Below, one piece after another: positions 1,785-58,985 of a DNA stretch of 64,000 nucleotides (the stretch's first letter is position 1; the number at the start of each line of letters is the position of its first letter). A program made the position numbers and the translations under genes. The notes under the pieces were generated by a model that was given only the letters and a program-made list of their open reading frames with translations, made no database searches and was not told the DNA's origin. The stretch covers positions 45,926 through 109,925 of the forward strand of contig JAGBJI010000006.1 of the NCBI GenBank assembly GCA_017934545.1, read 5' to 3'. This DNA is from Bacteroidales bacterium (lineage in GTDB: Bacteria > Bacteroidota > Bacteroidia > Bacteroidales > P3).

Positions 1785-1935
1785 TCAAACAAATTCCGCC
1801 CCTTGCGAAAGTAATCCCGAAAAAATCACATTTTTTGCCTCAAAAAAATAGTTTTTTTGACCGAAAAAATCAGATTTTTTCGGGATTACTTTCGCAAGGG
1901 GCGGAAAAATTTTGCCTTACGGCAGAGGTGTTCTG
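1785..1935. repeat. Long-arm 22-bp phased array, copy A
   Basis: The arms 1796-1827 and 1873-1904 are perfect 32-bp inverted repeats. Between and overlapping them are three A6-N5-T6 units starting at 1820, 1842 and 1864, exactly 22 bp apart, with words TCACA, TAG and TCAGA. The outer flanks (GCAGCCC / CTTACGGCAG) resemble those of copies B-H. It fills most of the 317-bp gap between two co-directional surface-protein genes; no other feature is seen in that gap. As RNA it would form a very stable hairpin, so it could also end transcription of the upstream gene. Confidence 0.85.
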
Positions 1936-1976
1936 ACATAAGGCAAAATTAAAACTTAAAACTTGGGTTTCAGATA

Positions 1977-4900
1977 CTATCTTAACACCTCTATAGTACC
2001 CGTAAAGTCAAGGGTTTTGCGTTTGGCTTTGGCTACAAACCTGAAGAAATAACTTCCGTCAGGGGTATTGGTAGCAGCAGGGTCCCAAAAATCTTCCTTG
2101 GTTCTGATATTTTCTTTTTCATATATCAGTTTGCCGTAGCGGGTATAGATTATAAGTTTGTTTTCTTCGTAAATACTTTGGTCTAAAAGACCGGCAATCT
2201 CAAAAATATCGTTTTGTCCGTCACCGTTAGGCGTTACGAAGTTAGGGAACGACAGTTCCACCACGTGCAAATCCAAAACCAATGTTGAATCGCAGCCGTA
2301 CATGTCGGTAAAGACATTGGTGTATACGCCCGTTTCCGATTCGTTGAACTCATGTTGGTCGTATGTTTCGTTTTTGAATATTTCCACGTGCAGCGTATCC
2401 ACAAACGGTTCCACTCTGATGAAATTCAAGGTTACCAAAGAGTCGCAACCCCACACTGATTGCAGTTCTTGGGTGTATATACCCGTTTGCTCTTGGTCAA
2501 AACCGTAGCCTTGGTATCCTTCGCCGCAGCCTATGGCAAATACGGTATCATAAAAATTGTTTCTTATCGTAAGGTTCAGAGTTACGGTGCTGTCGCAGCC
2601 GCTTACGGATTGCAATGCCTGCGTGTAAACGCCCGTTTGGTTCTCGTTGAAATTGTTTTCAGTGTATGTTTCCCCGTTGCAGATATTGGCAAAGATAGTT
2701 GTGTCGTAAACAGGATTGACCGTAAGGTTTAAATGTACGGTACTGTCGCAACCGTTTACGGATTTAAGATATTGGACGTACTCTCCGGTCATGTGTTCGT
2801 CAAAGTTGTTTTCCGTGTAAGAAGTTCCCTGACAAATATCGGCGGAGATAACCGTGTCGTATACGGGACATACTTCCAAAGTTAGCGTAATTACGGAATC
2901 GCAACCGTTTTCGGTTGTCAGATTTTGAACATATACGCCCGTAGCGTTTTCTTCAAAGCCGTAGAAAGCGTATGTTTCGCCTTGGCAAACGGTGTCCGAA
3001 AGATTTATATTGTATACGGGATACACCGAAAGGTTAAGCACCGTTATTGAGTCGCAGCCCGCCTGCGATTGATAGTGTTTTTTGTACTGTCCTGCGGCAC
3101 TTTCGTTAAATCCGAAGTTGTTGTACGTTTCCCCTTGGCATATCTGTGCCTCTATGGTGTCGGCATAAACAGGGCTGACGGTGATGTGTTTGTATGCAGA
3201 GCCTCCGCAAGTACCGTTGTACAGCAGTTCCAAACCGTAGAGGGTGTCTTGCAGTTGCGGATATACGGTTATGCTTGACGCAGTGTCACCCGTACTCCAT
3301 TTATAACTCATTCCCTGTATGTTTTGTGTGGATGCGGTCAAAAGAAGCGAATCTCCCAAACATATTTTATCATTTGCGAATATTTCTGCATTGAAATTGA
3401 ACTGAATATTCAGCGGAATATGCAACGTGTCAGTGCATTGCGAAGCGGACAGGCGGCACACCAGCTTTATGTCATACAGTCCGTTTGCCGTGTATTCCCT
3501 TTCCACAGTGTCTTGGTAAGATATGCTTCCGTCCTCAAATATCCAAAATGCAGTGTCTACGAATTGTCTTGTGTAAACTCCCTGCGTTGAGTCAAAATCA
3601 AGGAAACTTTCGTTGCAGAAAATCACTTTTGAAGCACATGTATCTATTTTGTACGATGCTTTAGCGACAGGATTGATGTCCAAAGGTATGGTTTCAATGG
3701 TGAAATTGCACGAAGGCTTGCCCACAAACGACGCTACGCATTGGTAAACATTGTCGTCAACGGGAACTTTTACTTCATATGTTTTGGACAAAGTGTCGGT
3801 TTTGCCTTTTTGATGCCAATAGTAATCAAAACCTAACGGTGCCTGCAACCAAACGGAATCAACTCCGTCGCAGCGGTTGAGTACATATATCTTTTTGTTG
3901 TCGCATTTTATGTTGAAATAAGCATAACCGAAGTGTCCCCCTTCGTCACAATCGTAAGTTGTAAGTCTGACGTGTATGGTTTGTTCGTGATAAGGGGCAA
4001 GGTCAATGCCGACCGTAGTCCAGTCTTTCCATATTACTTTAGGTACAGAGTTCTCTACTTCGTTCCAACCTAAATCTCCTGCGGCGTAAAAGTCGGCAAA
4101 GCAACATGTAGTGTCTATTACATTGTCGTTACTGTCAAGTATTTCCAACGTGAAACGCGGTTGGTTTTCTTTAGTGTGACCCGGGTCTTGCATCACAACG
4201 GCATATTTCAACACTATCATGTCCTTATCCGCCGTGTCAACGGTGTATTCGTACGATATACTTTCGGCCTTGCGTCCGACTTCCGTACTTCCCAACTGTA
4301 CGGATGCTATTTCGTCGGGTGCAATACATCTTAAAAGTCCGTTGGTTGTCCAATCGTATGAGCTTGTATCATTGATTACCGTGTGTGAACCCGTACCCCA
4401 GAAATATTTATTGGTGCCTCCGTTGTGTATGTCGTAGTTTGCTTCCCATGTGTTGTAGTACGGGTCGTCGTACGTTCCCCATGTAAGAAAAGTTTTTTCA
4501 CCCGTTAAATTGGTAAAATCAAGACAGTTGTCAAACGTTGTGGTGATATAGCGTGATACATCGCACGAAGGTCCGCCCGAACACAAGGTGTAAAGGAATA
4601 CTTCATATGTAGTATTCGGTTCAAGTCCGTAGATAGTGTCTTTTTCTTTACTTTTGTCAACTGTATCGTAATATACTAAACTGTCCATCGGTTGATACAG
4701 TTTTTTGTATGCTACAATTACTTTGGAAACCGTATCATATACGGAGTTGTTTTCAGTTTCCCATGCCGTAGCTATTGACGTAGGGGTTACACCTTCAAAT
4801 CCTACACTCCAGAGTTGCGGACAAAGGGTAGGAGTTAGTATGGAACTGTTATATGAACAGTAAATATCTTTTTCGAATTTCTGCGACAAACGGTCGCAGT

Positions 4901-10063: not shown

Positions 10064-10216
10064 TTCGTTTATTGTTTGTAAATAAAATATATACATTATA
10101 TATATAAATTTGCAAAGATAATAAAATTAAATGTATTTTGCGGTAAAATGCGGATAAATAATCAATAAAATTTGCTTAACAGTGTTTTTACTGTATTATT
10201 TTCTGATTTCAGTATG

Positions 10217-10345
10217 TAAAAAGTGTGATTTTATTAATATAAAAATCACACTTTTTTGATATAAAAATGTGACTTTTTATGGTCAAAAGTGTGATTTATA
10301 CAGTATAAAAATGTGATTTTTATATCAAAAAAATGTGAGTTTTTT
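10217..10345. repeat. 22-bp phased array J (TGTGA word)
   Basis: Five to six units with a TGTGA or TCACA core flanked by A and T runs. Successive units (for example from 10241 on) start 22 bp apart. It lies in the 383-bp gap between the divergently transcribed surface-protein gene and the OprP-like porin. No long inverted arms like those of copies A-H. No clear TTTG/TAnnTTTG promoter could be assigned for either neighbour; otherwise the gap holds only AT-rich sequence. Confidence 0.75.
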
Positions 10346-10446
10346 TATCTTCTTTTCTGAATTTATTTGCGGCAAAGCATATAATAAATATTTGTTTTCT
10401 GCGTTACAATGCTTGTAAATAAACAATAAAACACACAAAACACAAA

Positions 10447-14464: not shown

Positions 14465-14481
14465 TTTGTATTTTCAAAAAT

Positions 14482-16255: not shown

Positions 16256-16444
16256 CATCTTTTTTTTAATATAGCAAGAATAATGTGCGAAAAAAAGACA
16301 ATCTCCGGCGGTTAACAATTGTTATGCAGGTATTTAACCGAAAGGGTAGGGCGTTAAACAAAACCTATTTTGATAAGTTGTCATAATTTATAATTGACTA
16401 TAAAAAATAAAATTCACTGTATAAAAATTTCTTTTCAGAAAATG

Positions 16445-16536
16445 AAATAAAAAAACATATGTATTTTTTCAAAAAAACATATGAATTTTAATCAAAAAAC
16501 ATATGTTTTTCGTTTCAAAAACATATGTTTTTTTAA
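16445..16536. repeat. 22-bp phased array K (CATATG word)
   Basis: Four copies of CATATG, each embedded between A-runs and T-runs, spaced exactly 22 bp from one to the next. It lies in the 488-bp gap between the divergent yceD operon and the DPP IV gene. The same word and spacing recur 35 kb away in array N. The rest of this gap holds only the two promoters and unremarkable AT-rich sequence. Confidence 0.85.
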
Positions 16537-16666
16537 TTTGGTTCCGCAAAACAGTACGTCAAAAGCGTTGTTGGCATTGCAATGCGGGGAGTTTTTATCC
16601 GATAGGTTGTTGAACGTGCAATATCAAATAAATGTTTTACTGTAATATGAAGTTGATATTTTTTTG

Positions 16667-21546: not shown

Positions 21547-21577
21547 GTTTCGTTTTTGCCGAACGGCGTTTTAATTC

Positions 21578-26595: not shown

Positions 26596-26604
26596 CCATG
26601 TATA

Positions 26605-43929: not shown

Positions 43930-44090
43930 CCGCCGCTTTTTGCGTTTTCATTTCCGCCCCTTCGCACTTTAGCTTGAAAAAAATCTGATTTTTTGCATGA
44001 AAAAACCTATTTTTTTACTCAAAAAAAACTATTTTTTTTCGGATTAAAACCGCAAAGGGCGGAATTTATTCGCCGTTAGGCGGCGGTTAA
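43930..44090. repeat. Long-arm 22-bp phased array, copy F
   Basis: Three units with TCTGA, CCTA and ACTA words, 22 bp apart. Arms CCGCCCCTTCGC (43954 on) and GCAAAGGGCGG (to 44062) are imperfect inverted repeats; outer flanks CGCCGC / GCGGCG also pair. Between parC and lemA, both on the minus strand. Confidence 0.78.
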
Positions 44091-48026: not shown

Positions 48027-48035
48027 TTACACTCT

Positions 48036-48974
48036 TTAAAGCGGATGTTCAAGCAACCATCTTTCGCAGTCTATTGCGGCTTTTGCACCGCTTCCCGCAG
48101 CCACTACGGCCTGACGGTAACGGTTGTCCTGCACGTCGCCGCATGCAAACACGCCTTCAACGCTTGTGTACGATGTCTGACCTTTGGTGATTATGTATCC
48201 GCTTTCGTCCAACTCCAACTGCGATTTAAACAATTCGGTTGCAGGTTCGTTGCCTATGGCTACAAAAAGTCCGGTTACGGATATGTCGCTTTGTTCTCCG
48301 TTTACGGAAGACTCTATTCTCAATCCCGTGACACCGCTTTCATCTCCCAAGACTTCTTTTGGCTTGTTTTGCCAAAGTATCTCTATATTGGGTTTTTCCT
48401 GTACCATGCGTGCAAGTATGGCAGTAGCCCTCAACTGATTGCGTCGTACAACCATGTAAACTTTGTTGCAAATGCCTGCCAGATAGAGTGCTTCGGCACA
48501 TGCCGTATCGCCTCCTCCGACGACGGCAACGTCTTTTTTACGGTAGAAAAAGCCGTCGCATGTGGTACAGGTACTCACTCCTTGTCCGCGGAACTTGCTT
48601 TCGCTTTCCAATCCCAACCATTTGGCTCTTGCACCCGTTGAGATGATGATGCTTTGTGCCGAGTATTGATTGCCGTCTTCGTCTTCCAAGACAAAAGGTC
48701 TTTGTTTTAAATCAACCTTGCTGATAACTTTGCTGCGGATGTCCGCACCGAATCTTTCGGCTTGTTTACGCATGTCTTCCATAAGCCCGAAGCCGCTTGT
48801 TCCCTGCGGATATCCGGGGAAGTTATCTATTTGTTCGGTCATCGTTATCTGACCTCCCGGGGCAGAACCCTCAAACATCACGGGTTTGATGTCGGCACGC
48901 AGGGCATAGATTGCCGCCGTATAGCCCGCAGGCCCCGAGCCGATTATGGCACATTTTATATTTTCAGTTGTCAT
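48036..48974 (-). CDS. trxB: Thioredoxin reductase
   Basis: A 312-aa FAD/NADPH enzyme reducing thioredoxin. GSGPAGYTAA FAD site (12-21), redox pair Cys136-Cys139 in 'TCTTCDG', NADPH site 'VVGGGDTACAEA' and C-terminal 'VFACGDVQD'. Full length. Promoter-like TAGTTTTG lies 30 bp upstream. Operon with the Porin_10 gene. Confidence 0.96.
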   Translation of the reverse strand: MTTENIKCAIIGSGPAGYTAAIYALRADIKPVMFEGSAPGGQITMTEQIDNFPGYPQGTSGFGLMEDMRKQAERFGADIRSKVISKVDLKQRPFVLEDEDGNQYSAQSIIISTGARAKWLGLESESKFRGQGVSTCTTCDGFFYRKKDVAVVGGGDTACAEALYLAGICNKVYMVVRRNQLRATAILARMVQEKPNIEILWQNKPKEVLGDESGVTGLRIESSVNGEQSDISVTGLFVAIGNEPATELFKSQLELDESGYIITKGQTSYTSVEGVFACGDVQDNRYRQAVVAAGSGAKAAIDCERWLLEHPL

Positions 48975-49004
48975 ATCTTTTTTCCTTTAACAATTATTAT
49001 TTTG

Positions 49005-49012
49005 CAAAACTA
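49005..49012 (-). promoter_or_regulatory. -7 promoter element of trxB
   Basis: TAGTTTTG on the minus strand (TAnnTTTG), 30 bp before the ATG. Confidence 0.5.
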
Positions 49013-49116
49013 CAAAAAATAAACGAAAGAATGCTTAAAAACCGCTTCACTTTTACAGACGGGCAAAAAATATCTTTAGTTTCTGACTTTATTTTGTTGT
49101 TTTCAGAATTGATTTT

Positions 49117-49203
49117 GTTTTGAACCGTCCGAAAGTATATTTCAGACCGTCCAAAACTTACTTTCGGACGGTTCAAAAGTGAGTTTCGGACGGTTCAAAA
49201 CAA
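49117..49203. repeat. 22-bp phased array M (ACCGTCC word, two units each orientation)
   Basis: ACCGTCC at about 49124 and 49146 (forward) and GGACGGT twice after it (reverse); consecutive units are 22 bp apart. The whole is a palindrome of about 85 bp with TTTTGAACC / GGTTCAAAA ends. Much less AT-rich than the other arrays but with the same spacing. It lies in the 481-bp gap between divergent trxB and araC-type genes. The rest of the gap has only the two promoters and unremarkable sequence. Confidence 0.82.
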
Positions 49204-49406
49204 TTTCTTTTCTGAAAATGCAAAAATTAAATGTGTTTTTACAAAAATAAAGCGGCGTTTTACAAAAATGTGTTGCATGTATGAATCCGCACAGTGCGGA
49301 CAAATGTGTCGGCAGATATGGATATAATATGGTTTAATGGGTATAATCTTACAAAAAGACCGTAAATAACGGCATATATTATACATTTAAACCATTTTTT
49401 TTTTTA

Positions 49407-49414
49407 TAATTTTG
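49407..49414 (+). promoter_or_regulatory. -7 promoter element of the AraC-family gene
   Basis: TAATTTTG after a T-run; TTTA 18 bp upstream is the -33 candidate; leader about 35 nt. Confidence 0.55.
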
Positions 49415-49455
49415 CATTCAAAAATAAAAAACACTTAAAATCTTTTTACAACACG

Positions 49456-50472
49456 ATGCGGATTGTAACACTCAAAGACGACATGGGATTTCCGTTCGCA
49501 CAGTATAACGACGGAGATATTTTTATAAGCAATGATTTCTTTACGGTCAAACATGACAACGAGCCTTTCAAAACCACTATGACCATAGTATGTCTGTGTA
49601 CGCAGGGGTCGGGGACTATATCTATTAACGATACTACCTACAATTATTCCGACAGGGATATGGTAGTCATCGCTCCGTACTCAATCATTTGCGGCGGCGC
49701 GGCAGCGAAACAATCCAAGTTCCGTATCATGGCTTTTGACGGGTTGAGTATGCGTAACAATATTGCGGTCAGCAAAGATACATGGACAAGTCTGATGTAT
49801 GTAAAGAACAATCCCGTCTGCAAACTCTCGGACTATCAGTACAAGGTGATGAATCATTATTTTGAATTGGCATATCTGTACGTTCAAAACCCGCACGACA
49901 TTTATCAAAAGGACAAGATGAGCAATCTGACGCGGTGTTGGATTTACGATTTGCTGACCATGATTTCCGAGTATTCGGATTACAAAAGTTTTAACAAGGA
50001 ACGGTTTTCGTCAAACGATGTTATGTTTCAGAAGTTTATAGAAATACTTTCGTTGCATAACGGCAAAATGCGGTCGGTTCAGAGTGCGGCAAAGCAAATA
50101 GGCATGTCACCCAAATATCTTTCATATGTAGTCAAGCAGGCTACGGGTAAAACGCCGCAGACTTTCATCCACGAGTTCACAATCAATGCCATGAAAGAGC
50201 AGTTGAAGTATTCTGGCAAGTCAATCAAAGAGATAAGCAACGACATGGACTTTACGGAGCCGTCGTTTTTCGGAAAATTTTTCAAACAGCACACTTCAAT
50301 GACGCCGCTTGAGTACAGACGGCAGGTACTTCAACAACAAAAAGAACCTAAAGAAGATTTACCGTCTGCAAACCGCACCTTTGCGTCTGCAAACATTTAT
50401 TCGCAGGACGCAAAACTCAATGAAGATATTTCTTCTCTGTATTCCGCCTTGGGTTTTATGTGTTGGATGTAA
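49456..50472 (+). CDS. AraC family transcriptional regulator
   Basis: A 338-aa regulator: an N-terminal cupin-like sensor (about 15-110, 'GSGTISINDTTYNYSDRDMVVIAP') and a C-terminal double helix-turn-helix (about 200-298, 'SAAKQIGMSPKYLSYVVKQATGKTPQTFI', 'IKEISNDMDFTEPSFFGKFFKQHTSMTPLEYRR'). A ~40-residue extension follows. It may control the adjacent C39-like lipoprotein gene 92 bp downstream, or the divergent trxB; no operator was identified. Confidence 0.9.
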   Translation: MRIVTLKDDMGFPFAQYNDGDIFISNDFFTVKHDNEPFKTTMTIVCLCTQGSGTISINDTTYNYSDRDMVVIAPYSIICGGAAAKQSKFRIMAFDGLSMRNNIAVSKDTWTSLMYVKNNPVCKLSDYQYKVMNHYFELAYLYVQNPHDIYQKDKMSNLTRCWIYDLLTMISEYSDYKSFNKERFSSNDVMFQKFIEILSLHNGKMRSVQSAAKQIGMSPKYLSYVVKQATGKTPQTFIHEFTINAMKEQLKYSGKSIKEISNDMDFTEPSFFGKFFKQHTSMTPLEYRRQVLQQQKEPKEDLPSANRTFASANIYSQDAKLNEDISSLYSALGFMCWM

Positions 50473-50529
50473 ACAAAAGGCATAATTGCAATTGATAAAG
50501 CAGGATTTTTAAGTTTTAAACATTTGTTT

Positions 50530-50537
50530 TAACTTTG
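50530..50537 (+). promoter_or_regulatory. -7 promoter element of the C39-like lipoprotein gene
   Basis: TAACTTTG, 27 bp before the ATG at 50565; this placement rules out the upstream TTG at 50535 as start. Confidence 0.55.
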
Positions 50538-50564
50538 CAGATTCATAACACAAAACAACAGAAT

Positions 50565-51329
50565 ATGTATACAAAAGCAATAAAATCCGTTCTTATCTGT
50601 TCTATATTGGTTTTTGCAGGATGCAGTTCGCATTCTGACAAAGCGGATTGCGGCAATAACTCCGCAAGGACGGAAAATAAAAACGCAGTATTACTAAAAG
50701 ATTTTCCGACATTGCAACAGACCACAGACTATACATGCGGCAATGCAGCAAGTCTGATGGTTATGAAATTTTTCGGTGACAGCAGCGAAACGGAAAGCTC
50801 TTTGGCAGAGAAGATGCACACACATACCGACAGCCAAACGCCCGGTGCAAAACCCGGTTCGGCAAAACAATGGACTGATTACGGAACAAGTGTAGGGGAG
50901 ATATACAATTACTTTCTTAAAAATAAGAATTACCGCATCGTTTTTTCAAGTTATGACAACAAAAACTCTCTTCTTACCGATACTTCTGCGGTCGGCATTC
51001 AGGCAGTGAATAACAAAAAACCTGAATTTGCGGATTACGGAAAGGCAGCGAAGTTTTTTGCCGACAATATCAGAAACGGAAGACCTGTAATGGTATGTTG
51101 GAACGCTTGGGGCGGACATTGGACGGTGTGTATAGGATATGACGACAACCGAACCGCAGATTTCTTTGACGATGACGTGCTTACGATGGCTGACCCGTAC
51201 GATACGACCGACGGAATACAAGACGGCTATACCAAAGTGCCGTTAGTGCAGTTTTTTTACGATTGGTTCTGCACCATGACGCCCAAACCTTACCAGTTAC
51301 AACCTTATATAGTAGTTGAAAAACGCTGA
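50565..51329 (+). CDS. C39-like papain-fold peptidase, lipoprotein
   Basis: A 254-aa lipoprotein: lipobox 'LVFAGC' with Cys20, then a papain-like domain with Cys58 in 'DYTCGNAAS', His185 in 'GGHWTVCIGY' and Asp210 in 'TMADPYD'. This matches the Peptidase_C39_2 pattern. It is membrane-anchored on the periplasmic or outer side, so a bacteriocin-leader role is unlikely; peptide or wall-peptide cleavage is possible. Preceded by an AraC regulator. Confidence 0.83.
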   Translation: MYTKAIKSVLICSILVFAGCSSHSDKADCGNNSARTENKNAVLLKDFPTLQQTTDYTCGNAASLMVMKFFGDSSETESSLAEKMHTHTDSQTPGAKPGSAKQWTDYGTSVGEIYNYFLKNKNYRIVFSSYDNKNSLLTDTSAVGIQAVNNKKPEFADYGKAAKFFADNIRNGRPVMVCWNAWGGHWTVCIGYDDNRTADFFDDDVLTMADPYDTTDGIQDGYTKVPLVQFFYDWFCTMTPKPYQLQPYIVVEKR

Positions 51330-51354
51330 TTCGTTGCATTGTTTTCAGAATCCG

Positions 51355-51446
51355 TTTTCAAAAAACATATGTATTTGAAATAAAAAACATATGTTTTTTT
51401 ATAAAAATTCATATGTTTTTTTGAAAAAATACATATGTTTTTTGTT
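51355..51446. repeat. 22-bp phased array N (CATATG word)
   Basis: Four CATATG hexamers in A/T runs, exactly 22 bp apart, the same word as array K. It fills the gap between the converging C39-like and OMP genes and could also stop transcription from either side. Confidence 0.85.
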
Positions 51447-51497
51447 TTTACTTTCAGAATTTGTTTTTGTGCAAGGTCATACTTTGCCGGCAGATAG

Positions 51498-53849
51498 TTA
51501 CATTCCGAAGCGGGAAGTGTCCACCTGCTTTTGTTGTCTTTGCTTATAACCTTTGAATTTGTAGGCAATCTCAAGGCGGAAGAACCTGCTGTAAAAATTA
51601 CTGTTCATTTCGTAGTTCTGTCCTAACTTATTGCAATAATAAACTCCGTATCTGCTTTTGAAAATATCGTTAAGACTTAAATTCAGTGTCAATCTGCCGT
51701 CAAAAAATTCGCTTTTCAATGCCGCATCCGCCGCAATCTTTCCGTCATATTCCCTCATTGCCGCAAAACCGTGTGAATGGTAATCAACAAAAAGACTAAA
51801 AATTATCTTGGGTTTATAACTTATGGTAATATCCGTGCTGTTTGTTGCCGTAAATTGCACGTAACGGTTATCAAAACTCAAAGAAAACCAATCGTTTGCT
51901 TTGTATTGCTGCCACCGAACTTGACCTTGGAAACGCGAAGTGAGTCTTTGTCCTATTTCTATCGGAAAAGACAGACCTGCAAAGGCAAGCTGCGTTTTTT
52001 CAATGTTAAGTGTTTGGGTTAGTTTCACAAGCGTGTCGGGTAAGAAATAATCCTGTTGCACCAAATTGTCCTTTGAATACAGGTAACCGACGGTTAAAAC
52101 ATACTTTTGTTTGAATATATAGTTGAAATACGTCACGTTGGCAATATCAGGCCGCAAATAAGGATTGCCTTTTGAAATACTGTATTTGTCAGAGTGCGTT
52201 GTGTAGTCCTGCAATTGCCAATAAGACGGGTGGGTGCGAGATGTGTAGTTGTGCAATTGTAATATATAGTCAATATTCGGCATATACGACAGCGTAAAGT
52301 CAGGCAATAAATCATTTATTTTGTACCCGTCATTATTGTAATATTCATCTGTAAGCGTAGCATCTAAATTCAGTTTGTTGTTAAGGAAACTTTTTCTGAC
52401 GGAAACGAAAGCCCGTACGCTGTGTTCTGAAATGATTGCCGTAGTTTTGTAATTGTCCGCAGCGGATTGTGATAAATCGGTATTCATTTGCCTGTTTTTG
52501 TTCTCGGTATAAGAATATCTGCCGCCGTAAGCAAGACTCCAACCGTTGGAAAGCGAATTGTTTATATTCAAGTAGCCCATTACCTTGTTTATCTTTTGAT
52601 TTGCGTTGTACGAAAAGGCATCTGACAAAGGCAAAAGCGTAACGCCGTCCGGTGAATACTCACTGTATTGCATTTTTTGCGTGTAGTCGTTGTTGTAATT
52701 AGTGTATTCCGCACCTGCGTTAAAGGAAAAAATTTGTTCGGGTCTGCTTTTGCCGTGGTCATAGTGCAAAGAAATGTTGTGAAGATAGTTTTCAATGTCA
52801 TTATCCGACAAAGAATTGCCCGTATATGAGTTTTTGCTGCTGCCCTGTTGCGTTTGACGGGGTACATACGTCCCCATGTATGAAAGATTTATGGATTTAA
52901 AGTCATCAATGTTGTATGCGGCAGAAGAATATATGTTGTGAGTAGAGCCTTCGGTCAAGCTGTAAGAGTCGGAGTGGATGTCAAAGACATTATTTGCCAC
53001 TTTGTGATGGACATCGGTGATTAAGCGGCTTTTTCTCTTGCCTGCGGCGTAATCGTACGACAAGTCAAAATTCCATTTGGGCGAAGCAAAGAATGCCGAT
53101 GCCGCAGTACCGAAACTGTTTGCGGATTGGTTGCGGTATTTTGCCCCGATTTGACCGCTGTATGAGTAGTGACGCTCTTTTTTCAATATAACGTTGACGG
53201 CGGCACCCCTTACATTCCACTCGGCAGGTGCATTGTAGGAAATTTCCACGTTTTCAACCTTTTCTGCAGGCAATGTCTTTAAGTAATTTATCAAATTGTC
53301 ATAGCTCTTTGTAGAAACCCTGCCGTTGATAAGCAATGCCGAACCTTGAGTACCGACAACTGTCAGATTGTTTTCATCATTGCTGGCAACGGACGGCAAT
53401 TCCCGTATCAAATCAAAAGCACTTACGACAACCTTTTTCTGTCTTACCGCCTGTGCGTCATATTTCAATTTATTGTCTTGCAGAGTTACTATCTGCCGAG
53501 CAGCTTTCACTTCAACGGTTTGCAGAAAAGTGCCGTCCGATTCCAATATTACCTCGCTTTTAAGGTCTTTCAAATCTGCGGAATATGGTTTAAAGCCCAC
53601 GAAACTGATGATTACGAACTTGTTTTGAGTGTTTGCCGTGTTTAAAACAAATTTGCCCGTGCTGTCAGTCGCAGTTCCTTCAACCAAAGAGGAGTCCGCC
53701 TTGTTCAAAACCACAACATTGGCAAACATAATAGGGTTTTGTGCCGTGTCTTTGACAATATATTCCGAGGGTTGCGAAATTGCATTTAACCGGCAGGCAA
53801 TCACGGCAATCAAAATTAAGAGTTTTTTCATCGTTTTTAGTTTTTTCAT
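51498..53849 (-). CDS. Outer-membrane beta-barrel receptor (OMP_b-brl_3, TonB-receptor-like)
   Basis: A 783-aa protein. Signal peptide ('IAVIACRLNAISQ'; Met7 is an alternative start); carboxypeptidase-regulatory-like domain about 25-115 ('MFANVVVLNKADSSLVEGTATDSTGKFVL', 'ISFVGFKPY'); plug-like domain ('ELPSVASNDENNLTVVGTQGSALLINGR', 'LPAEKVENVEI'); then a large barrel. Such proteins resemble SusC/TonB receptors but are shorter and often regulated with surface variation. An 11-C run lies 25 bp upstream of the start. Confidence 0.88.
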   Translation of the reverse strand: MKKLKTMKKLLILIAVIACRLNAISQPSEYIVKDTAQNPIMFANVVVLNKADSSLVEGTATDSTGKFVLNTANTQNKFVIISFVGFKPYSADLKDLKSEVILESDGTFLQTVEVKAARQIVTLQDNKLKYDAQAVRQKKVVVSAFDLIRELPSVASNDENNLTVVGTQGSALLINGRVSTKSYDNLINYLKTLPAEKVENVEISYNAPAEWNVRGAAVNVILKKERHYSYSGQIGAKYRNQSANSFGTAASAFFASPKWNFDLSYDYAAGKRKSRLITDVHHKVANNVFDIHSDSYSLTEGSTHNIYSSAAYNIDDFKSINLSYMGTYVPRQTQQGSSKNSYTGNSLSDNDIENYLHNISLHYDHGKSRPEQIFSFNAGAEYTNYNNDYTQKMQYSEYSPDGVTLLPLSDAFSYNANQKINKVMGYLNINNSLSNGWSLAYGGRYSYTENKNRQMNTDLSQSAADNYKTTAIISEHSVRAFVSVRKSFLNNKLNLDATLTDEYYNNDGYKINDLLPDFTLSYMPNIDYILQLHNYTSRTHPSYWQLQDYTTHSDKYSISKGNPYLRPDIANVTYFNYIFKQKYVLTVGYLYSKDNLVQQDYFLPDTLVKLTQTLNIEKTQLAFAGLSFPIEIGQRLTSRFQGQVRWQQYKANDWFSLSFDNRYVQFTATNSTDITISYKPKIIFSLFVDYHSHGFAAMREYDGKIAADAALKSEFFDGRLTLNLSLNDIFKSRYGVYYCNKLGQNYEMNSNFYSRFFRLEIAYKFKGYKQRQQKQVDTSRFGM

Positions 53850-53874
53850 CGTTTAAACTGCATTATAACGAAAT

Positions 53875-53885
53875 CCCCCCCCCCC
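53875..53885. repeat. Homopolymeric C11 (G11) tract at the 5' end of the OMP receptor gene
   Basis: Eleven consecutive C residues on the plus strand, 25 bp before the OMP ATG on the minus strand. Long G/C runs in an AT-rich intergenic region are prone to slipped-strand mispairing, and this position could alter promoter spacing or the leader. Confidence 0.9.
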
Positions 53886-53974
53886 TGAAAATTGTGCAAA
53901 AAGAGGAAAAAATTTCATTAAACTTCACACTTGTATAACAGTTGAGCGGTAAAAAAGGTTACAAAAACTTTTTT

Positions 53975-54232
53975 TCCTGCCGCCCAAAAACGTTTTCCTG
54001 CTGCCTAACGGCATTTCAATTTTGCCCTTTCTGAAAAGAGTTTGAAAAAAAATAGGTTTTTTGCATCAAAAAAATAGGTTTTTTGATGCAAAAAATGTGA
54101 TTTTTTTAATCTTACTTTCAGAAGGGGCGGAAATCAAATGCGAAAAGGCAACAACGAAATGCGAAAAAGCAGAAATTAAATACGATAGGGCGGCAGTACA
54201 GTATGATAGGATAGTAGTAAATAATAAAACGA
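53975..54232. repeat. Long-arm 22-bp phased array, copy G
   Basis: Core units TAGG, TAGG and TGTGA words at 22-bp spacing; inverted arms GCCCTTTCTGAAA and CTTTCAGAAGGGGC. Both flanks are degenerate 21-bp tandem repeats: left 'AACGGCATTTCAATTTTGCCC' type (one unit more than 20 is not shown in full elsewhere), right 'ATGCGAAAAGGCAAC...' type with four units. Near-identical to copy H on the far side of the TetR-ABC-ABC cassette. Confidence 0.85.
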
Positions 54233-54256
54233 CTGAAAAAAATACTGAAAAGAGAG

Positions 54257-54289
54257 TATTGCACGGCGGAAATACTTGCCGTAATTTTG
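54257..54289 (+). promoter_or_regulatory. Promoter of the tetR-ABC cassette
   Basis: TATTG (54257-54261, close to TTTG), 20-bp spacer, TAATTTTG (54282-54289); predicts a leader of about 15-20 nt with GTGAGG before the ATG. Confidence 0.6.
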
Positions 54290-54311
54290 CATCGTTAAAA
54301 TTTTTGTGAGG

Positions 54312-54923
54312 ATGCAAATAATTAAAGACGACATACAGCGAAATATTATCTTAAAATCCAAGGATATTTTCTTAAACCACGGATTTCAAAAGGCAAATAT
54401 GCGGGATATTTCCGCACAAAGCGGCGTTTCGCTCGGCAATCTTTACAATTATTTCGCATCCAAAGACGAAATATTCTTATCTGTCGTCTGTCCGGTTATG
54501 GTTTCTTTGTACAAAATGCTGGACAGACATCACGGAAAGCAATCTTCGGACATCACAGTGCTGAAAAACGAAAATTATCTTCCGAATGTGCTTGACGAAT
54601 ATCTGACTTTGATAAGACAGCATAAGGATTTGTTGCGGTTACTTTTGATTTTATCCGACGGAAGCCGCCTTAAAAACTTTAAAACCGAATACATACAACG
54701 TTCAAACTCCGTGGTACGCACGTGGCTTTCAGACATGAAGGAAAAATATCCGCACATACAAACGGATTTTTCGGACAATTTTCTTTCGCTTCACACATTT
54801 TGGATGTTTGAAACCATAGAACAAATCATCAAAACCGAAACATCGGACAGTGATGCCGCAAAAACGCTCGGCGAATACTTAACCTTTGAAATTCAAGGGT
54901 GGAAACAACTCACCGGAATATGA
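54312..54923 (+). CDS. TetR/AcrR family transcriptional regulator
   Basis: 203 aa from the ATG at 54312 (a GTG at 54306 is also in frame). N-terminal HTH about 10-60: 'FLNHGFQKANMRDISAQSGVSLGNLYNYFASKDEIFLSVV'. The C-terminal ligand domain is all-helical. It precedes two ABC exporter half-transporters and is likely their regulator; a terminator separates it from them, so read-through or an additional promoter must serve the ABC genes. Confidence 0.92.
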   Translation: MQIIKDDIQRNIILKSKDIFLNHGFQKANMRDISAQSGVSLGNLYNYFASKDEIFLSVVCPVMVSLYKMLDRHHGKQSSDITVLKNENYLPNVLDEYLTLIRQHKDLLRLLLILSDGSRLKNFKTEYIQRSNSVVRTWLSDMKEKYPHIQTDFSDNFLSLHTFWMFETIEQIIKTETSDSDAAKTLGEYLTFEIQGWKQLTGI

Positions 54924-54977
54924 AAACAAAAAAGCCATATCTAAATATACTGCCTTTAAGTGCAGAAAAATCATTGC

Positions 54978-55013
54978 AAGAGGTTGCTTTACGGCAGCCT
55001 CTTTTCTTTTTTA
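54978..55013 (+). terminator. Terminator/attenuator between tetR and the ABC genes
   Basis: Stem AGAGGTTGC / GGCAGCCTCT (one G-T pair), loop TTTAC, then TTTTCTTTTTT. It lies 73 bp before the first ABC gene. Confidence 0.75.
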
Positions 55014-55085
55014 TGAACCGAAACGGCTTTTGTTCGTTTTTGAATAAGCAAATAAATAATTTAAATCATAAAAAACTTTACTCAA

Positions 55086-56879
55086 ATGAATAGAAAACAA
55101 AAACACGGCGTGGCAAGATTGTTAGAGATTGCGGGACAAAAGAAAATTCTTCTTATTGTTTCGTCAGTTTTTTCCGTTTTTTCCGCCGTTATGATGCTTG
55201 TTCCTTATTTTGCGGTGTACAAAATATTGGAGGAATTGCTGAAAAATTTTAACCACATCGGCAGTATAAACACCCCTTTTCTGCAATCGTGGGCGTGGAT
55301 AGCCTTGTTAGGGCTTGCAGGCGGCCTTTTGTCGCTGTATCTTTCGCTTATACTGTCGCACATTGCGGCATTCAACATTCTTTACGGCTTAAGAATGACA
55401 ATAAGTGAGCATATTGCCAAACTGCCGTTGGGATTTATTACCTCCACATCCACAGGTGCGGTAAAGAAAACTATGGAACAAAACGTTGAAAAGGCAGAAA
55501 CGTTCATCGCCCACACAATTCCCGACATTGTAAACGTAATTGCTACCATTGCGGTGATGTTTGCCGTATTTTTTACGTTGAACGGTTGGCTTGCAACGGT
55601 ATGTTGCTTGGTTATAGCCGCAAGTCTTTATTTACAGTTCTCGGTTTTTTACGGCAAAAAGGCAACGGAACTTGTTAAATCCTATTATGACACCCAGGAA
55701 TCCTTATCCGCTTCGGCTGTGGAGTATGTAAGCGGAATGCAGGTCATAAAAATCTTTTCCCAAAGCTTAAACTCTTTCAAAAACTTCGCAAAACAAATCA
55801 ACGAATACAAGACTTTCGCCCTTAAAATCTGCAACCTTTACGAGAAGCCTATGATCCGTTTTACTGTGGGGCTGAATTCCGTTGTTGCGTTCATACTTCC
55901 CGTGGGTATAGTGCTGTTTGAACGCTCTGCGTCTTCGGTTTCTTTCGCTGCGGTGTGGTTATTTTTCATTATAATGTCACCCGGACTGGCTTCTCCCGTA
56001 TATAAATTGATGTATTTAGGCTCTTCAACCAAAGAAATTGACGAAGGAGTGCAGCGGATTGACAATATATTGAATCAAAAACCCTTGCCCGAGCCGTCAA
56101 ATCCGAAAATACCGAATTCTTATGACATAAAATTCTCTCAAGTTTACTTTTCCTACGATGCAAATGCGGGCAAAGACAACTGCGTTTTAAAAGATATTAA
56201 TTTTACTGCACAAAACGGCAAAATAACTGCACTTGTCGGAGCGTCGGGAAGCGGAAAATCTACGCTGGCAAGCCTTATTGCGAGATTTTATGACGTAAAT
56301 GCGGGCGTAATATCCATAGGTGAGGTAAATATAAAGGACATTGCTTCAAGCGAACTTATGAATCTTGTCGCTTTTGTCTTCCAAGATACGTTTCTTTTGC
56401 GGGATACCGTCGCTAAGAACATAAATCCTAACAATGAAAAGGCAACTACGGACGATATAATCTTATCTGCCAAAAAGGCGCAGTGCCATGATTTCATTAT
56501 GTCTTTACCTAACGGTTATCAAACCGTAATCGGTGACAACGGGGTTAATCTTTCGGGCGGTGAAAGGCAAAGAATCTGTCTTGCGAGGGCTGTTATGAAA
56601 AATGCTCCCATACTTGTCTTGGACGAAGCGACTGCTTTTGCCGACACGGAGAATGAACAGTTGATTCAAAAGGCAGTTTATGAAATTGCAAAGGACAAAA
56701 CCGTCATCCTAATCGCACACCGCTTGTCTACAATCCGCAATGCCGACAAAATTATCGTACTTGACAAAGGCCGAATCGCACAAAAAGGCACTCACTCTTC
56801 GCTTTTACAAACCGAAGGCATATATAATAATATGTATAAGGCGTTTTGCCGTTCACAACAATGGAAGATAAAGAATTAG
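55086..56879 (+). CDS. ABC exporter half-transporter (first of a pair)
   Basis: A 597-aa protein: six membrane helices in residues about 20-310, then an ABC ATPase with Walker A 'GASGSGKST' (about residue 385), 'LSGGERQR' signature, Walker B 'ILVLDEATAF' and 'AHRLST' H-loop. The D-loop reads 'AFADTENEQ' rather than SALD; this form is common in heterodimeric exporters related to YbtP/YbtQ and IrtA/B. Together with the next gene it should form a heterodimer. Substrate unknown: drug, peptide or siderophore. Confidence 0.9.
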   Translation: MNRKQKHGVARLLEIAGQKKILLIVSSVFSVFSAVMMLVPYFAVYKILEELLKNFNHIGSINTPFLQSWAWIALLGLAGGLLSLYLSLILSHIAAFNILYGLRMTISEHIAKLPLGFITSTSTGAVKKTMEQNVEKAETFIAHTIPDIVNVIATIAVMFAVFFTLNGWLATVCCLVIAASLYLQFSVFYGKKATELVKSYYDTQESLSASAVEYVSGMQVIKIFSQSLNSFKNFAKQINEYKTFALKICNLYEKPMIRFTVGLNSVVAFILPVGIVLFERSASSVSFAAVWLFFIIMSPGLASPVYKLMYLGSSTKEIDEGVQRIDNILNQKPLPEPSNPKIPNSYDIKFSQVYFSYDANAGKDNCVLKDINFTAQNGKITALVGASGSGKSTLASLIARFYDVNAGVISIGEVNIKDIASSELMNLVAFVFQDTFLLRDTVAKNINPNNEKATTDDIILSAKKAQCHDFIMSLPNGYQTVIGDNGVNLSGGERQRICLARAVMKNAPILVLDEATAFADTENEQLIQKAVYEIAKDKTVILIAHRLSTIRNADKIIVLDKGRIAQKGTHSSLLQTEGIYNNMYKAFCRSQQWKIKN

Positions 56880-56908
56880 AAACAAAGATTAAAAAACAGT
56901 AAACTGAT

Positions 56909-58681
56909 ATGGGAGCAATAAAAAATATAACCGTAGGGGATTATTCCAAGATTAAAAAGCCCGCAATGATGAACATAGCGGCAAATATTTTCAATATAGT
57001 GCCGTTTGCGTTGAGTATAGAGGCGGTAAACTTGATATTCCGTTTGTCATCGGGCGTTGCAATGCCCAAAGATAAGATTGCACTGTGGGTAATAGCCGCC
57101 GCAATGCTTTTATATATGACGGTGATGGCGTATTTTGAGAAACTGTCGTACCGTTCAGCCTTTACGGGTGCGTACAATGTGAGTGCAGAAGGACGGGTTA
57201 AGCTTGCCGAACATTTACGCCGCCTTCCGTTAGGATTCTTAAGCAAGTACGACCCTGCAGATTTGTCTTCAATGTTGATAACTGACTTTGCAATGGCGGA
57301 AACAGGCCTTTCGCATCATTTACCTCAGTTGATAGGGGCGTTGGTTATGCCTTTGCTGGCGTTTTTGGGCTTGGTATGGATAGATTGGCGGATGTCAATG
57401 GCCATGTTTGCCGCCTTACCGATAGCAATACTGATAATGTTTTTGGCAGTTAAGGTTCAAAACAAATTAAGTAAGGCACAAATTCAGGCAAAACTCTCTG
57501 CAGCGGCACGTATCGAAGAATATCTGCAAGGGCTTCGCATCATAAAGGCGTATAATATGGAGGGAGAGAAATTTTCACGCCTCAAAAGTGCGTATCTTGC
57601 CTTAAAAACTTCGTCAATTAAGCAAGAAGCACTGTTAGGTCCGTTTATACTGTTGTCAATAGCCGTCGTGCGTGCGGGACTTACGTTTATGATACTTTTG
57701 GGTGTGTATTTAATCTCGCAAAGTGACCTTAGCGTAATGAATTTTGTGATGTTTTTGGTGATAGGTGCCAGAGTGTTTGACCCGTTGACCAAAGCACTGA
57801 CAAATTTTGCGGAGTTCCGTTATTTTTCTATTGCAGGCGGGCGGATATTGTCGCTTATGGACGCAAAGGAACAAGAAGGCACGGAAGAATTACCGCAGGA
57901 AAATTCATTAAACACTGAAGAAAAAACAAAGAATCCGCACCGCAATTTGATAGAATTTAAAGACGTTTCGTTTTCTTATAATGACAAGGAGGTGTTGAGC
58001 CGCATTAATTTAAAATTTACCGAAAACACTTTGACGGCATTAGTAGGTAAATCGGGCAGCGGCAAAAGTACGGTGATGAAACTAATTGCCAGGTTTTACG
58101 ATTGCAACAACGGAGCGGTGCTGTATCAAGGCAAAAATCTCAAAACGCTTAACCCCGAGGCGTTTATGCGTAATATTTCGATGGTATTTCAAGACGTGTA
58201 TTTGTTTAAAGACACTGTGAGGAACAATCTTTTGTTTGCCAAACCCGATGCTGACGATGAGGAGTTAATATCGGTCTGCAAAAAAGCACAGTGCCACAAT
58301 TTCATTATGAATTTGCCTAACGGTTATGACACAATGGTAGGCGAGGGCGGCCAAACCTTATCCGGAGGCGAGAAACAGCGTATTTCCATCGCCCGTGCCA
58401 TGCTTAAAGATGCCAAAATCATACTTTTGGACGAGGCAACGGCCTCTTTGGATGCGGAAAACGAATTTTGGGTTCAGCAAGCCATAAACAACCTGATTAA
58501 AGACAAGACTGTAATTGTTATTGCCCACAGACTGAATACTATTGTCGCCGCTGACAACATTGCAGTGCTTGATGACGGGCGTATAACCGAACAAGGAACG
58601 CACCAAGAGTTGATTAAAAACAATAAACTCTACAACAAACTGTGGCAAATGCAGATGTCGGATAACGAAACCGACGAATAA
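56909..58681 (+). CDS. ABC exporter half-transporter (second of a pair)
   Basis: A 590-aa protein with the same architecture: six membrane helices to about residue 310, then Walker A 'GKSGSGKST', 'LSGGEKQRISIARA' signature, Walker B 'IILLDEATASLD' and 'AHRLNT'. It keeps a canonical ATPase, unlike the slightly deviating first half. It starts 29 bp after the first half-transporter; heterodimer formation is inferred from pairing. Confidence 0.9.
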   Translation: MGAIKNITVGDYSKIKKPAMMNIAANIFNIVPFALSIEAVNLIFRLSSGVAMPKDKIALWVIAAAMLLYMTVMAYFEKLSYRSAFTGAYNVSAEGRVKLAEHLRRLPLGFLSKYDPADLSSMLITDFAMAETGLSHHLPQLIGALVMPLLAFLGLVWIDWRMSMAMFAALPIAILIMFLAVKVQNKLSKAQIQAKLSAAARIEEYLQGLRIIKAYNMEGEKFSRLKSAYLALKTSSIKQEALLGPFILLSIAVVRAGLTFMILLGVYLISQSDLSVMNFVMFLVIGARVFDPLTKALTNFAEFRYFSIAGGRILSLMDAKEQEGTEELPQENSLNTEEKTKNPHRNLIEFKDVSFSYNDKEVLSRINLKFTENTLTALVGKSGSGKSTVMKLIARFYDCNNGAVLYQGKNLKTLNPEAFMRNISMVFQDVYLFKDTVRNNLLFAKPDADDEELISVCKKAQCHNFIMNLPNGYDTMVGEGGQTLSGGEKQRISIARAMLKDAKIILLDEATASLDAENEFWVQQAINNLIKDKTVIVIAHRLNTIVAADNIAVLDDGRITEQGTHQELIKNNKLYNKLWQMQMSDNETDE

Positions 58682-58701
58682 AAAAGTTATTTTTACGCTT
58701 T

Positions 58702-58985
58702 TCCGCCGACAGAAAACGTTTTATAACCGCCTAAAAATGTTTTACCGCAGCCTAACGGCATTTCAATTTTGCCCTTTCAGAAAAGAGTTTGAAAAAAATA
58801 GGTTTTTTACCTCAAAAAAATAGGTTTTTTGATGCAAAAAATGTGATTTTTTTACTCTTATTTTCAGAAAGGGCGGAAATTAAATGCGAAACGGCAACGA
58901 CAAAATGCGAAACGGCAGAATTTAAATGCGTTAGGGTGGTAGTACAACATAATAGGGTAATAGTAAATAGTAAAACTGGCGGCAG
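58702..58985. repeat. Long-arm 22-bp phased array, copy H
   Basis: Core TAGG, TAGG, TGTGA words at 22-bp spacing with arms GCCCTTTCAGAAAAGAG and TTTTCAGAAAGGGC. Left and right flanks repeat with a 21-bp period as in copy G, with which it shares order, words and flanks in the same orientation. It lies between the converging ABC cassette and the broken AraC gene; no coding sequence is supported in this 392-bp gap. Confidence 0.85.

What the first reader, a model, noticed from the sequence alone, without database searches (positions are those of the whole stretch)
1785..58985. A family of intergenic arrays with a strict 22-bp period and changing 'words'
At 1.8, 10.2, 16.4, 21.6, 26.5, 30.0, 31.8, 33.6, 38.8, 44.0, 49.1, 51.4, 54.0 and 58.8 kb the gap between genes carries 3-5 units repeated every 22 bp (21 at 26.5 kb). 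The unit is usually A6-N5-T6; the central word differs between arrays (CATATG, TGTGA, CCTGC, ACCGTCC, TAGG, TCTGA) but tends to be uniform within one. Spacing, not sequence, is what is conserved. They occur in divergent, convergent and tandem gaps, so neither a promoter nor a terminator role explains all of them. I know of no described class with this design.
Basis: seen in the sequence. Interest (0 to 1): 0.85.

Follow-up and report, generated by a model that had tools for sequence, protein, structure and literature searches.

The report
Helix-phased repeat arrays between genes
This bacterium and its relatives place short mirror-like repeat arrays, spaced two turns of the DNA helix apart, between genes about every 5 kb, and in several of them the genes carry a helix-paced A/T rhythm that stays in step for hundreds to thousands of bases, which suggests the chromosome is held at a fixed rotational setting by proteins not yet identified.

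Summary
In 464 kb of this genome a single-lag detector finds non-coding arrays at lag 22 (47) and 21 (8), and only 1 at all other lags 12-40. Spacing outlives sequence: 10 of 14 sampled genomes of the genus carry 20-23 bp arrays, mostly with other words.

The unexpected part: coding DNA of own, G001, G009 and G005 carries a 10.5-10.6 bp A/T wave, phase-coherent over hundreds of bases to kilobases, across genes and strands, strongest at synonymous sites, destroyed by synonymous shuffling, not seen at long range in 150 kb of E. coli. Arrays follow its phase.

MITE, REP/BIME, slippage-minisatellite and terminator readings each fail a tested feature. Most likely the arrays are rotational docking or phasing sites of a nucleoid protein. 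The protein is inferred; histone-fold and RAYT genes were not found.

The parts
1811..1886 (.). class A array: 3 A6N5T6 units (TCACA, ATAGT, TCAGA), 22 bp, within a palindrome whose outer 34 bp pair perfectly (cap CCGCCCCTTGCGAAAGTAATC)
10200..10353 (.). class E array: 5-6 units AAAAGTGTGATTTT / AAAATCACATTTT in mixed orientation
16435..16542 (.). class B array: 4 units A6-CATATG-T6, 22 bp, divergent gap
21561..21674 (.). class C array: 4 units (CCTGC, CCCAT, CCTGC, CCTGC), convergent gap; G001 carries other arrays beside both flanking genes, G009 beside one of them
26520..26615 (.). class F array: 3 copies of the cap motif TTTTCAGAAAAGAATTTTTTC, 21 bp
30052..30119 (.). class A array (TCTGA, ATAGG, TGTGA), near-copy of the next two
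31804..31864 (.). class A array (TCTGA, ATAGG, TGTGA), just 3' of ORF 30308-31798
33601..33673 (.). class A array (TCTGA, ATAGG, TGTGA)
38748..38839 (.). class A array (ATAGG, ATAGT, ATAGT); used as query: 75 match rows in this genome (many places count once per strand), matches in 12 of 40 relatives
43966..44056 (.). class A array; the orthologous gap in G004, G002, G006 and G008 is short and has no array; in G001 it is about 2.5 kb with none detected
49110..49215 (.). class D array: 4 units ACCGTCC / GGACGGT, orientation switching once (long hairpin)
51351..51458 (.). class B array: 4 CATATG units, convergent gap
54037..54221 (.). class A array (ATAGG, ATAGG, TGTGA) plus outer 21-bp units GGGCGGAAATCAAATGCGAAA
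58783..58948 (.). class A array (ATAGG, ATAGG, TGTGA) plus outer 21-bp units; closest copy of the 54.0 kb array
46182..58681 (.). stretch of genes of the window that all show the coding 21-bp (2 x 10.5) signal (excess +0.016 to +0.090 at lag 21 over lags 18/24 in 8 genes)

Best explanation
SHOWN: the arrays are intergenic, palindrome-like clusters of A/T-tract dyads set two helical turns (21-22 bp) apart, with unit number fixed in class B and mostly fixed in class A, and caps in the same register, dispersed about every 5 kb. Their spacing is shared by related species that use other words. They follow the phase of a 10.5-10.6 bp A/T wave written into synonymous sites of the genes around them, coherent over hundreds of bases (this genome) to kilobases (G001, G009). 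INFERRED: in these bacteria long stretches of chromosome are held in one rotational setting against a protein surface (a nucleoid fibre or a wrapping protein). A/T minor grooves face the protein every turn; the intergenic arrays, free of codon constraint, are the strongest sites, where the protein docks or where rotational setting is fixed, and they separate transcription units. Sequence may change as long as phase and dyads stay, which lets copies spread and be replaced by new words in each species. The protein is unknown (HU-type or gyrase-type wrapping are the candidates).
For: Sharp period 21-22 only. Class B has 4 units in 30 of 30 arrays. Same period, other words in the genus: 201 arrays at lags 20-23 against 19 at lags 12-19 and 24-40 (summed by me, own genome included). 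Modelled curvature z -2.5 for 61 arrays against -0.55 for 30 array-less gaps. All gap types are used, start codons are avoided (11 of 67 within 60 bp against 21.6 expected), stops are not. Even spacing in own genome (CV 0.515 against 0.785, 0 of 5000 label shuffles; 1 of 5000 on repeat). Wave: seen to lags of 1300-2500 bp, between genes and opposite strands, 3rd and 4-fold positions far stronger than positions 1-2, gone after synonymous shuffling. AT at 4-fold sites predicted from coding DNA 30-500 bp away: 61.1 to 44.2% own, 67.9 to 47.1 G001, 74.6 to 54.4 G009; arrays follow the same prediction, 81.4 to 70.1, 79.0 to 63.2, 80.8 to 66.5. Phase locking of flanking genes to array centres: 0 of 200 random shifts reach it, to 700 bp own, 1300 bp G001 and G009.
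Against: Arrays and wave can be parted: G008 has arrays (9 in 57 kb) but no clear wave; G005 has the wave and few arrays (3 in 60 kb), and its array bases (287) do not follow the predicted phase. In this genome arrays run at 22 (11.0 per turn) while the wave is 10.6, and the lock phase is 56-73 degrees off exact continuation, so the arrays are not simply the wave. Array-less gaps are also phase-locked to the genes, so arrays are not shown to be its origin. An earlier lock test with 60 shifts and a fitted period was weaker: the observed value did not exceed the largest null for own at 400-700 bp, G009 at 60-200 bp and G001 at 1200-2000 bp (nor own beyond 700 bp). Even spacing is not significant in G001 (p 0.08) or G009 (p 0.41). 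Orthologous gene ends share arrays only weakly (G001 p 0.036 and 0.037; G009 p 1.0 and 0.19). Class C unit number varies (2 to 4). No bound protein was identified; no histone-fold gene. Long palindromes do not by themselves need a 22-bp period.
Confidence: 0.5

Rival explanations
1. Selfish non-autonomous mobile elements (MITE- or BIME-like palindromes). Bursts in each species explain species-specific words; the 22-bp layout is inherited from the founders and has no role.
For: Near-identical arrays with different flanks; caps shared between classes (read by eye); five of the nine most similar pairs of A6N5T6 arrays are chromosomal neighbours, 29 of 236 pairs being neighbours; at 43.9-44.1 kb four relatives have a short gap and no array; the exact A/T pattern is abundant only in own, G001 and G009 of the genomes searched.
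Against: No target-site duplication (best p 7.5e-4 among about 4875 offset tests); no Y1/RAYT transposase in 14 genomes; many unrelated families share one period; arrays follow the phase of neighbouring genes; over all pairs neighbours are not more alike (p 0.21).
Confidence: 0.22
2. Strong DNA-gyrase wrapping sites, comparable to BIME-2 of E. coli, that relieve transcription-driven supercoils every ~5 kb.
For: The E. coli gyrase motif is about 130 bp, symmetric, with 10.75-bp G/C periodicity, and gyrase cuts in BIME-2 (PMC6379681, passages read). Arrays are palindrome-like over about 120 bp, phased, evenly spaced in own and occur in gaps of every orientation.
Against: Not tested on gyrase. 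The wave runs through genes for kilobases, far beyond 130 bp. E. coli, which has gyrase, shows neither arrays nor long coherence in 150 kb.
Confidence: 0.13
3. RNA-level hairpins: transcription terminators or 3'-end mRNA protectors.
For: Single-strand folding is far better than shuffles (mean z -5.28, 53 of 61 below -2, against -1.15, 9 of 30 in other gaps); six arrays folded singly as DNA all beat their shuffles (z -4.97 to -15.07), some as one long stem, others as several shorter ones.
Against: 19 of 60 placed arrays lie in divergent gaps, no preference for the stop side (20 against 20.2 expected); hairpins need no 22-bp register; stems are mostly A:T.
Confidence: 0.07
4. The wave is a mutation or repair footprint of rotationally fixed DNA, without selection; arrays are slippage or copying products that prosper in such DNA.
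For: The wave is strongest at synonymous sites, as both selection and mutation bias would predict. A test restricted to changed third bases was not conclusive.
Against: Phase of orthologous genes is shared beyond the background from common descent (coherence at the wave period against the largest of 9 control periods: G001-G009 0.713 and 0.429; own-G009 0.444 and 0.319; own-G001 0.481 and 0.408); G008, without the wave, shows none (0.093 and 0.364), own-G002 (5 pairs) none (0.27 and 0.494). This favours selection only mildly.
Confidence: 0.25

Closest known systems
BIMEs / REP arrays (E. coli and others; PMC2817692, passages read)
   Same: intergenic, more than 100 copies, clusters of palindromic units in either orientation, mosaic, species-specific, suggested chromosome organisation role
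   Different: 22-bp rather than ~35-40-bp modules (latter recalled), A/T-tract arms, also common in divergent gaps, unit number fixed in class B, no RAYT gene in 14 genomes, following the phase of surrounding genes
BrickBuilt MITE of Porphyromonas gingivalis (PMC4596501; abstract, part 2 of 9 of the text, section 7 part 1, section 8 read)
   Same: Bacteroidota, intergenic, ~23-nt tandem unit inside flanking leader/tail, predicted long stem-loops
   Different: there one unit sequence, 19 loci, repeat number varying (0 to at least 18), IS5-type TIRs; here many words, about 3-7 units, nearly fixed in classes A and B, other caps, no TSD found
DNA-curvature-related 10-11 bp genome periodicity (PMC3431218 passages, PMC7537859 passages and Results part 1 of 4, PMC1242344 abstract)
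   Same: A/T-tract or dinucleotide periodicity at the helical repeat, not due to protein sequence, 'exceptionally persistent' in some chromosomes
   Different: PMC3431218 measures spacings of 30-100 bp and PMC7537859 up to 202 bp; the latter mentions local periodic regions of at least a kilobase in E. coli. Here one phase is kept over hundreds to thousands of bp, across genes and strands, with a 17-21 point AT swing at 4-fold sites and overt intergenic arrays; my script finds no long coherence in 150 kb of E. coli
PATC regions of C. elegans (PMC3819648, abstract read)
   Same: 10-bp periodic An/Tn, rotational constraint with the periodic sites on the protected face, arrays of cleavage sites persisting several hundred bp
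   Different: eukaryote with nucleosomes; mostly introns and noncoding (recalled); here bacterial, coding synonymous sites plus dyad arrays
E. coli gyrase motif (PMC6379681, passages read)
   Same: symmetric, helically phased A/T-G/C, indirect readout
   Different: degenerate, 130 bp, not an overt repeat array, no kilobase wave

Membership tests
MITE | terminal inverted repeats with defined ends | tested here: inconclusive
   class A caps are inverted repeats, but outer 21-bp units continue outward to 100 bp without a sharp end
MITE | target-site duplication | tested here: not met
   57 A6N5T6 and 31 CATATG elements (assembly duplicates not removed), about 4875 offset pairs, best p 7.5e-4
MITE | parent transposase with the same ends | not tested
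   only Y1/RAYT was searched
REP/BIME | palindromic units in alternating or mixed orientation, intergenic, >100 copies | tested here: met
   107 non-coding arrays in 634 kb, assembly duplicates included
REP/BIME | associated RAYT (Y1) transposase gene | tested here: not met
   0 of 14 genomes of the genus; 5 of 14 control genomes ring
BrickBuilt | 23-nt unit and IS5-like TIR GAGACCTTTGCA | tested here: not met
   units and caps compared by eye with those printed in PMC4596501
slippage minisatellite | variable repeat number between loci | tested here: not met
   class B 4 units in 30 of 30; class A 3 units in 44 of 62, 2 in 15, 4 in 3; but class C 4 in 5, 3 in 4, 2 in 1 of 10
intrinsic terminator | preference for 3' ends or convergent gaps | tested here: not met
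   tandem 29, divergent 19, convergent 12; no stop-side excess
helical-period (curvature) genome signal | A/T periodicity near 10.5 bp, independent of protein sequence | tested here: met
histone-type chromatin | histone-fold protein (PF00808) | tested here: not met
   0 of 14 genomes; 3 of 14 control genomes ring
HU-bound nucleoid | HU-family proteins present | tested here: met
   own genome 7 matches, all 14 genomes positive
HU-bound nucleoid | HU binds the arrays | not testable with these tools
   needs protein and DNA in the laboratory

The most novel reading that the evidence does not exclude
A bacterial chromatin code: in this clade the chromosome is held in one continuous rotational setting (period 10.52-10.6 bp) for hundreds to thousands of bases at a time by an unidentified fibre-forming protein. 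The code is written into synonymous codon choice and kept in phase by dedicated intergenic two-turn dyad arrays, whose words are replaced in each species while their geometry stays.
Probability: 0.4. Interest if true: 0.95.

Novelty: new variant of a known kind. Interest (0 to 1): 0.86.

Why it matters
The 10-11 bp periodicity of bacterial genomes has been observed for decades without an agreed function (PMC7537859 and PMC3431218, passages). Here it is strong enough to predict the A/T state of a synonymous site from DNA 30-500 bp away, it crosses genes and strands, and it comes with overt arrays that can be deleted, re-spaced and footprinted. That makes the question 'is bacterial DNA rotationally positioned on a protein surface?' directly testable. 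If true, it also means a repeat class in which geometry rather than sequence is inherited, and a layer of constraint on synonymous codon choice beyond codon usage.

Tried and rejected
Rejected readings, with the test: slippage minisatellite (unit number); BrickBuilt (units, caps); MITE with TSD; REP/RAYT; terminator or 3' element; histone chromatin. RNA-hairpin covariation in three-unit arrays: word 1 equals the reverse complement of word 3 in 1 of 28, so no support. Linkage between words and spacers is weak: 4 of 10 module pairs have uncorrected p below 0.05.

Led nowhere: naming the organism. Orthologous intergenic sequence is too diverged to read an insertion junction. The changed-site test of phase selection was ambiguous, because conditioning on change biases it. 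Similarity of A6N5T6 arrays does not fall with distance overall.

Limits: genes were called by a longest-ORF rule of my own (no annotation). Stretches of G001, G009 and some congeners were chosen around array hits or orthologous places, so their array densities are not unbiased; the 20 own stretches were placed at roughly regular steps on 8 contigs, chosen after but without regard to its hits. Own counts include 25 kb present twice through assembly redundancy. G006 counts 0 because its array lies under an ORF of my caller. G039 gave only two pieces of about 1.2 kb and was not analysed. Wedge-model parameters for curvature are recalled, not from a call. The shuffle keeps non-overlapping dinucleotides only. 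The class A profile was averaged with its mirror image, so it shows rhythm, not symmetry; the palindromes rest. One search timed out; one search failed on a file name.
Full report
WHAT WAS CLAIMED AND WHAT IS THERE. The window is G000:C8:45926-109925 of a 2.38-Mb genome in 14 contigs, GC 0.41. The only named relative found is a Bacteroidetes MAG.

IS IT MORE THAN CHANCE. In 464 kb (window plus 20 stretches at roughly regular steps) a 44-base self-match of at least 31 finds non-coding arrays 47 times at lag 22, 8 times at lag 21, once at lag 32 and never at the other 26 lags between 12 and 40; coding hits are 2, 1, 2 and 2 at lags 21, 22, 33 and 39. With a threshold of 28 the counts are 70 (lag 22), 30 (lag 21), 15 (lag 23) and 6 (lag 20), and 0-3 at each other lag from 14 to 30. 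Two arrays of the 58 are counted twice because 12,560-base pieces of contigs C4 and C7 are identical. The strict pattern A5N6T5N6A5N6T5 occurs 745 times per strand in this genome (overlapping matches counted), 218 in G001, 106 in G009, 13, 5 and 4 in three further congeners and 0 in the other 8 of 14; of 197 other genomes of the phylum 7 have any, at most 2.

ANATOMY. Units are A/T-tract dyads. Classes seen in this genome (named by me): A (ATAGG, TCAGA, TCACA and reverse complements; 3 units), B (CATATG; 4), C (CCTGC, CCACT; up to 4), D (ACCGTCC; about 4), E (GTGTGA; 5-6), F (cap motif only; 3), G (ACCCCC, ACCGGG; 3), H (AGTCCGACT; about 7), I (GTGACAC; 6-7) and a few singletons. Caps CTTTGCGAAAG or CTTTTCAGAAAAG flank the units (read); in the class A profile (49 arrays) A/T minima at 44, 65 and 86 bp from the centre continue the register. 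Class B has 4 units in 30 of 30 arrays, with 89 of 90 steps of 22; class A 3 in 44 of 62; class C varies from 2 to 4 in 10. In three-unit arrays words are not uniform (0.107 against 0.163 permuted, 28 arrays) and are only weakly linked to each other or to spacers. D arrays and one E array (L018) switch orientation once; the window's E array is mixed (by eye). Folded as single strands, arrays reach z -5.28 on average (53 of 61 below -2) against -1.15 (9 of 30) in other gaps; modelled curvature is also stronger (end-to-end 0.754 against 0.889 shuffled; other gaps 0.892 against 0.910) (wedge parameters recalled). In congeners both trends hold in G001, G009 and G013; G008 arrays fold well but are not curved; G005 and G011 (3 arrays each) lean to curvature and do not fold better than other gaps.

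PLACE. Of 61 arrays in 314 kb of contiguous sequence, 60 are placed in gaps of at least 120 bp: tandem 29, divergent 19, convergent 12. Start codons are avoided (11 of 67 array-to-start distances under 60 bp, 21.6 expected, 0 of 3000 random placements as low); stops are not (20 of 53, 20.2 expected). Arrays are more evenly spaced than random choice among such gaps: mean 4.4-5.2 kb, CV 0.515 against 0.785 (0 of 5000; 1 of 5000 on repeat), under 2 kb 5.6% against 18.8%. In G001 the trend is the same but not significant (p 0.08), in G009 not (p 0.41).

RELATIVES. Ten of 14 sampled genomes of the genus have 20-23 bp arrays; the four without (G003, G006, G007, G012) had 3-20 kb sampled, and G006 has one that my ORF caller covers. 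Summed over the genus: 201 arrays at lags 20-23 against 19 at lags 12-19 and 24-40. Words differ: G001 A7CTGT7, A7CCCT7 and ATCGCTGATTAATAAATTTTT; G009 A6ACTCTT6 and CCTATG/CCATGG; G008 AAAACAAAG types; G013 CATAATGCCATT. Outside the genus, at least one such array is seen in 4 of 5 family members, 1 of 2 in the order and 1 of 6 further Bacteroidota (one 20-kb stretch each). At orthologous gene ends own and G001 both have arrays more often than expected (both, own only, G001 only, neither: 5' 8, 9, 6, 27, p 0.036; 3' 5, 6, 6, 36, p 0.037), mostly of different sequence; own and G009 do not (p 1.0 and 0.19). Gap length confounds this, so I give it little weight. At 43.87-44.12 kb four relatives have a short gap without array.

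THE UNEXPECTED LINK. After removing codon-position means, the A/T signal of coding DNA has one sharp spectral peak at 10.5-10.6 bp in own, G001 and G009. Its autocorrelation amplitude at lags 15-120, 400-700 and 1300-2500 is 0.0080, 0.0028, 0.0006 (own), 0.0104, 0.0066, 0.0021 (G001) and 0.0108, 0.0077, 0.0039 (G009), against off-period maxima of 0.0031-0.0052, 0.0006-0.0011 and 0.0002-0.0005; G005 shows it too (0.0047, 0.0040, 0.0009); E. coli K-12 (150 kb) shows 0.0020 at 15-120 and nothing clear beyond. It is carried by third and fourfold positions rather than first and second (except that G001 fourfold sites do not exceed the control band at lags 15-200), holds between different genes and between opposite strands to 2 kb, is intermediate in G016, and weak or absent in G008, G011, G013, G002, G015, G018, G032, G026 and five other class members taken together. 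Synonymous-codon shuffling removes it (20 shuffles each: own 0.0080 to 0.0015, G001 0.0100 to 0.0023, G009 0.0099 to 0.0025 at lags 15-120). Using only coding bases 30-500 bp away to predict phase, AT at fourfold sites runs from 61.1% (predicted maximum) to 44.2% (predicted minimum) in own (n 34,859), 67.9 to 47.1 in G001 (20,329), 74.6 to 54.4 in G009 (20,167) and 81.9 to 73.9 in G005 (5,920); in E. coli (21,460), G018 (7,110) and G032 (5,691) the predicted maximum and minimum differ by less than 2 points. Arrays follow the same prediction in own, G001 and G009 (81.4 to 70.1, 79.0 to 63.2, 80.8 to 66.5), and so does other intergenic DNA, more weakly; G005 arrays (287 bases) do not. Flanking genes are phase-locked to array centres: 0 of 200 random shifts reach the observed value at 60-300 and 300-700 bp in all three genomes, and at 700-1300 bp in G001 and G009 but not own (p 0.70); array-less gaps lock as well, more weakly except in own at 60-300 and 700-1300 bp. 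A first version of this test, with 60 shifts, did not exceed the largest null in own at 400-700 bp and beyond, G009 at 60-200 bp or G001 at 1200-2000 bp. Orthologous genes share phase beyond the background from shared third bases in the three pairs among own, G001 and G009, and not in own-G008 or own-G002.

MECHANISM. Shown: geometry, palindromic build, unit number in class B, spacing, phase relation. Inferred: a protein surface holding DNA in one rotational setting. A period equal to two helical turns puts every dyad on one face, which a hairpin, a terminator or a slippage repeat does not need. HU-family genes exist (own 7 matches); histone-fold and RAYT genes were not found. The gyrase motif of E. 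coli (PMC6379681, passages) is the closest described DNA signal by shape.

AGAINST MY READING. G008 has arrays without a clear wave; own arrays run at 22 bp while the wave runs at 10.6, and their lock phase is 56-73 degrees off exact continuation; array-less gaps lock to genes too; even spacing is significant only in own; class C unit number varies; mutation bias is not excluded (changed-site test). Copying of whole arrays, by whatever route, surely contributes to their number.

NOVELTY. Helical periodicity and interspersed palindromes are known kinds. I found no description of two-turn dyad arrays with conserved geometry and changing words, or of long phase coherence at synonymous sites, in searches, of which I saw the listings; they cover open PMC papers only. 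PMC7537859 mentions local periodic regions of at least a kilobase in E. coli.

On holding the report against the calls I corrected the claim of fixed unit number (class C varies), of symmetry, of class E orientation, the range of the 4-fold swing, and added the weaker results. None of these changed my odds.

Noticed in passing
G000 contigs C4 and C7 (L016/L021, L017/L022): Two 12,560-base pieces are 100% identical at the same offset; C4 looks like an assembly duplicate of part of C7 and may account for the 8.1% contamination figure.
   Followed up: partly
window 33287-33601: A 104-aa ORF overlies a 21-bp array (33416-33507) and is probably not a gene.
   Followed up: no
L075-L077 (G015): A family member without 21-22 bp arrays has non-coding repeats at lags 16, 24, 32 and 40, multiples of 8.
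   Followed up: no
L051 1050-1600 (G034): A long array of GAAAAAACTTCTTTTT units, about 17-19 bp, in another family of the order, partly read as N.
   Followed up: no
window 53875-53885, approximately: A run of C just upstream of the gene at 51498-53849 (minus strand), a possible phase-variable tract.
   Followed up: no
window 11750-26453 against 46182-58681: The coding 10.5-bp signal varies along the window: weak in most genes of the first stretch, present in all 8 of the second. Whether this follows expression was not tested.
   Followed up: no
window 30052, 31804 and 33601; 54037 and 58783: Neighbouring arrays are near-copies including outer flanks, suggesting local copying or conversion.
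   Followed up: partly
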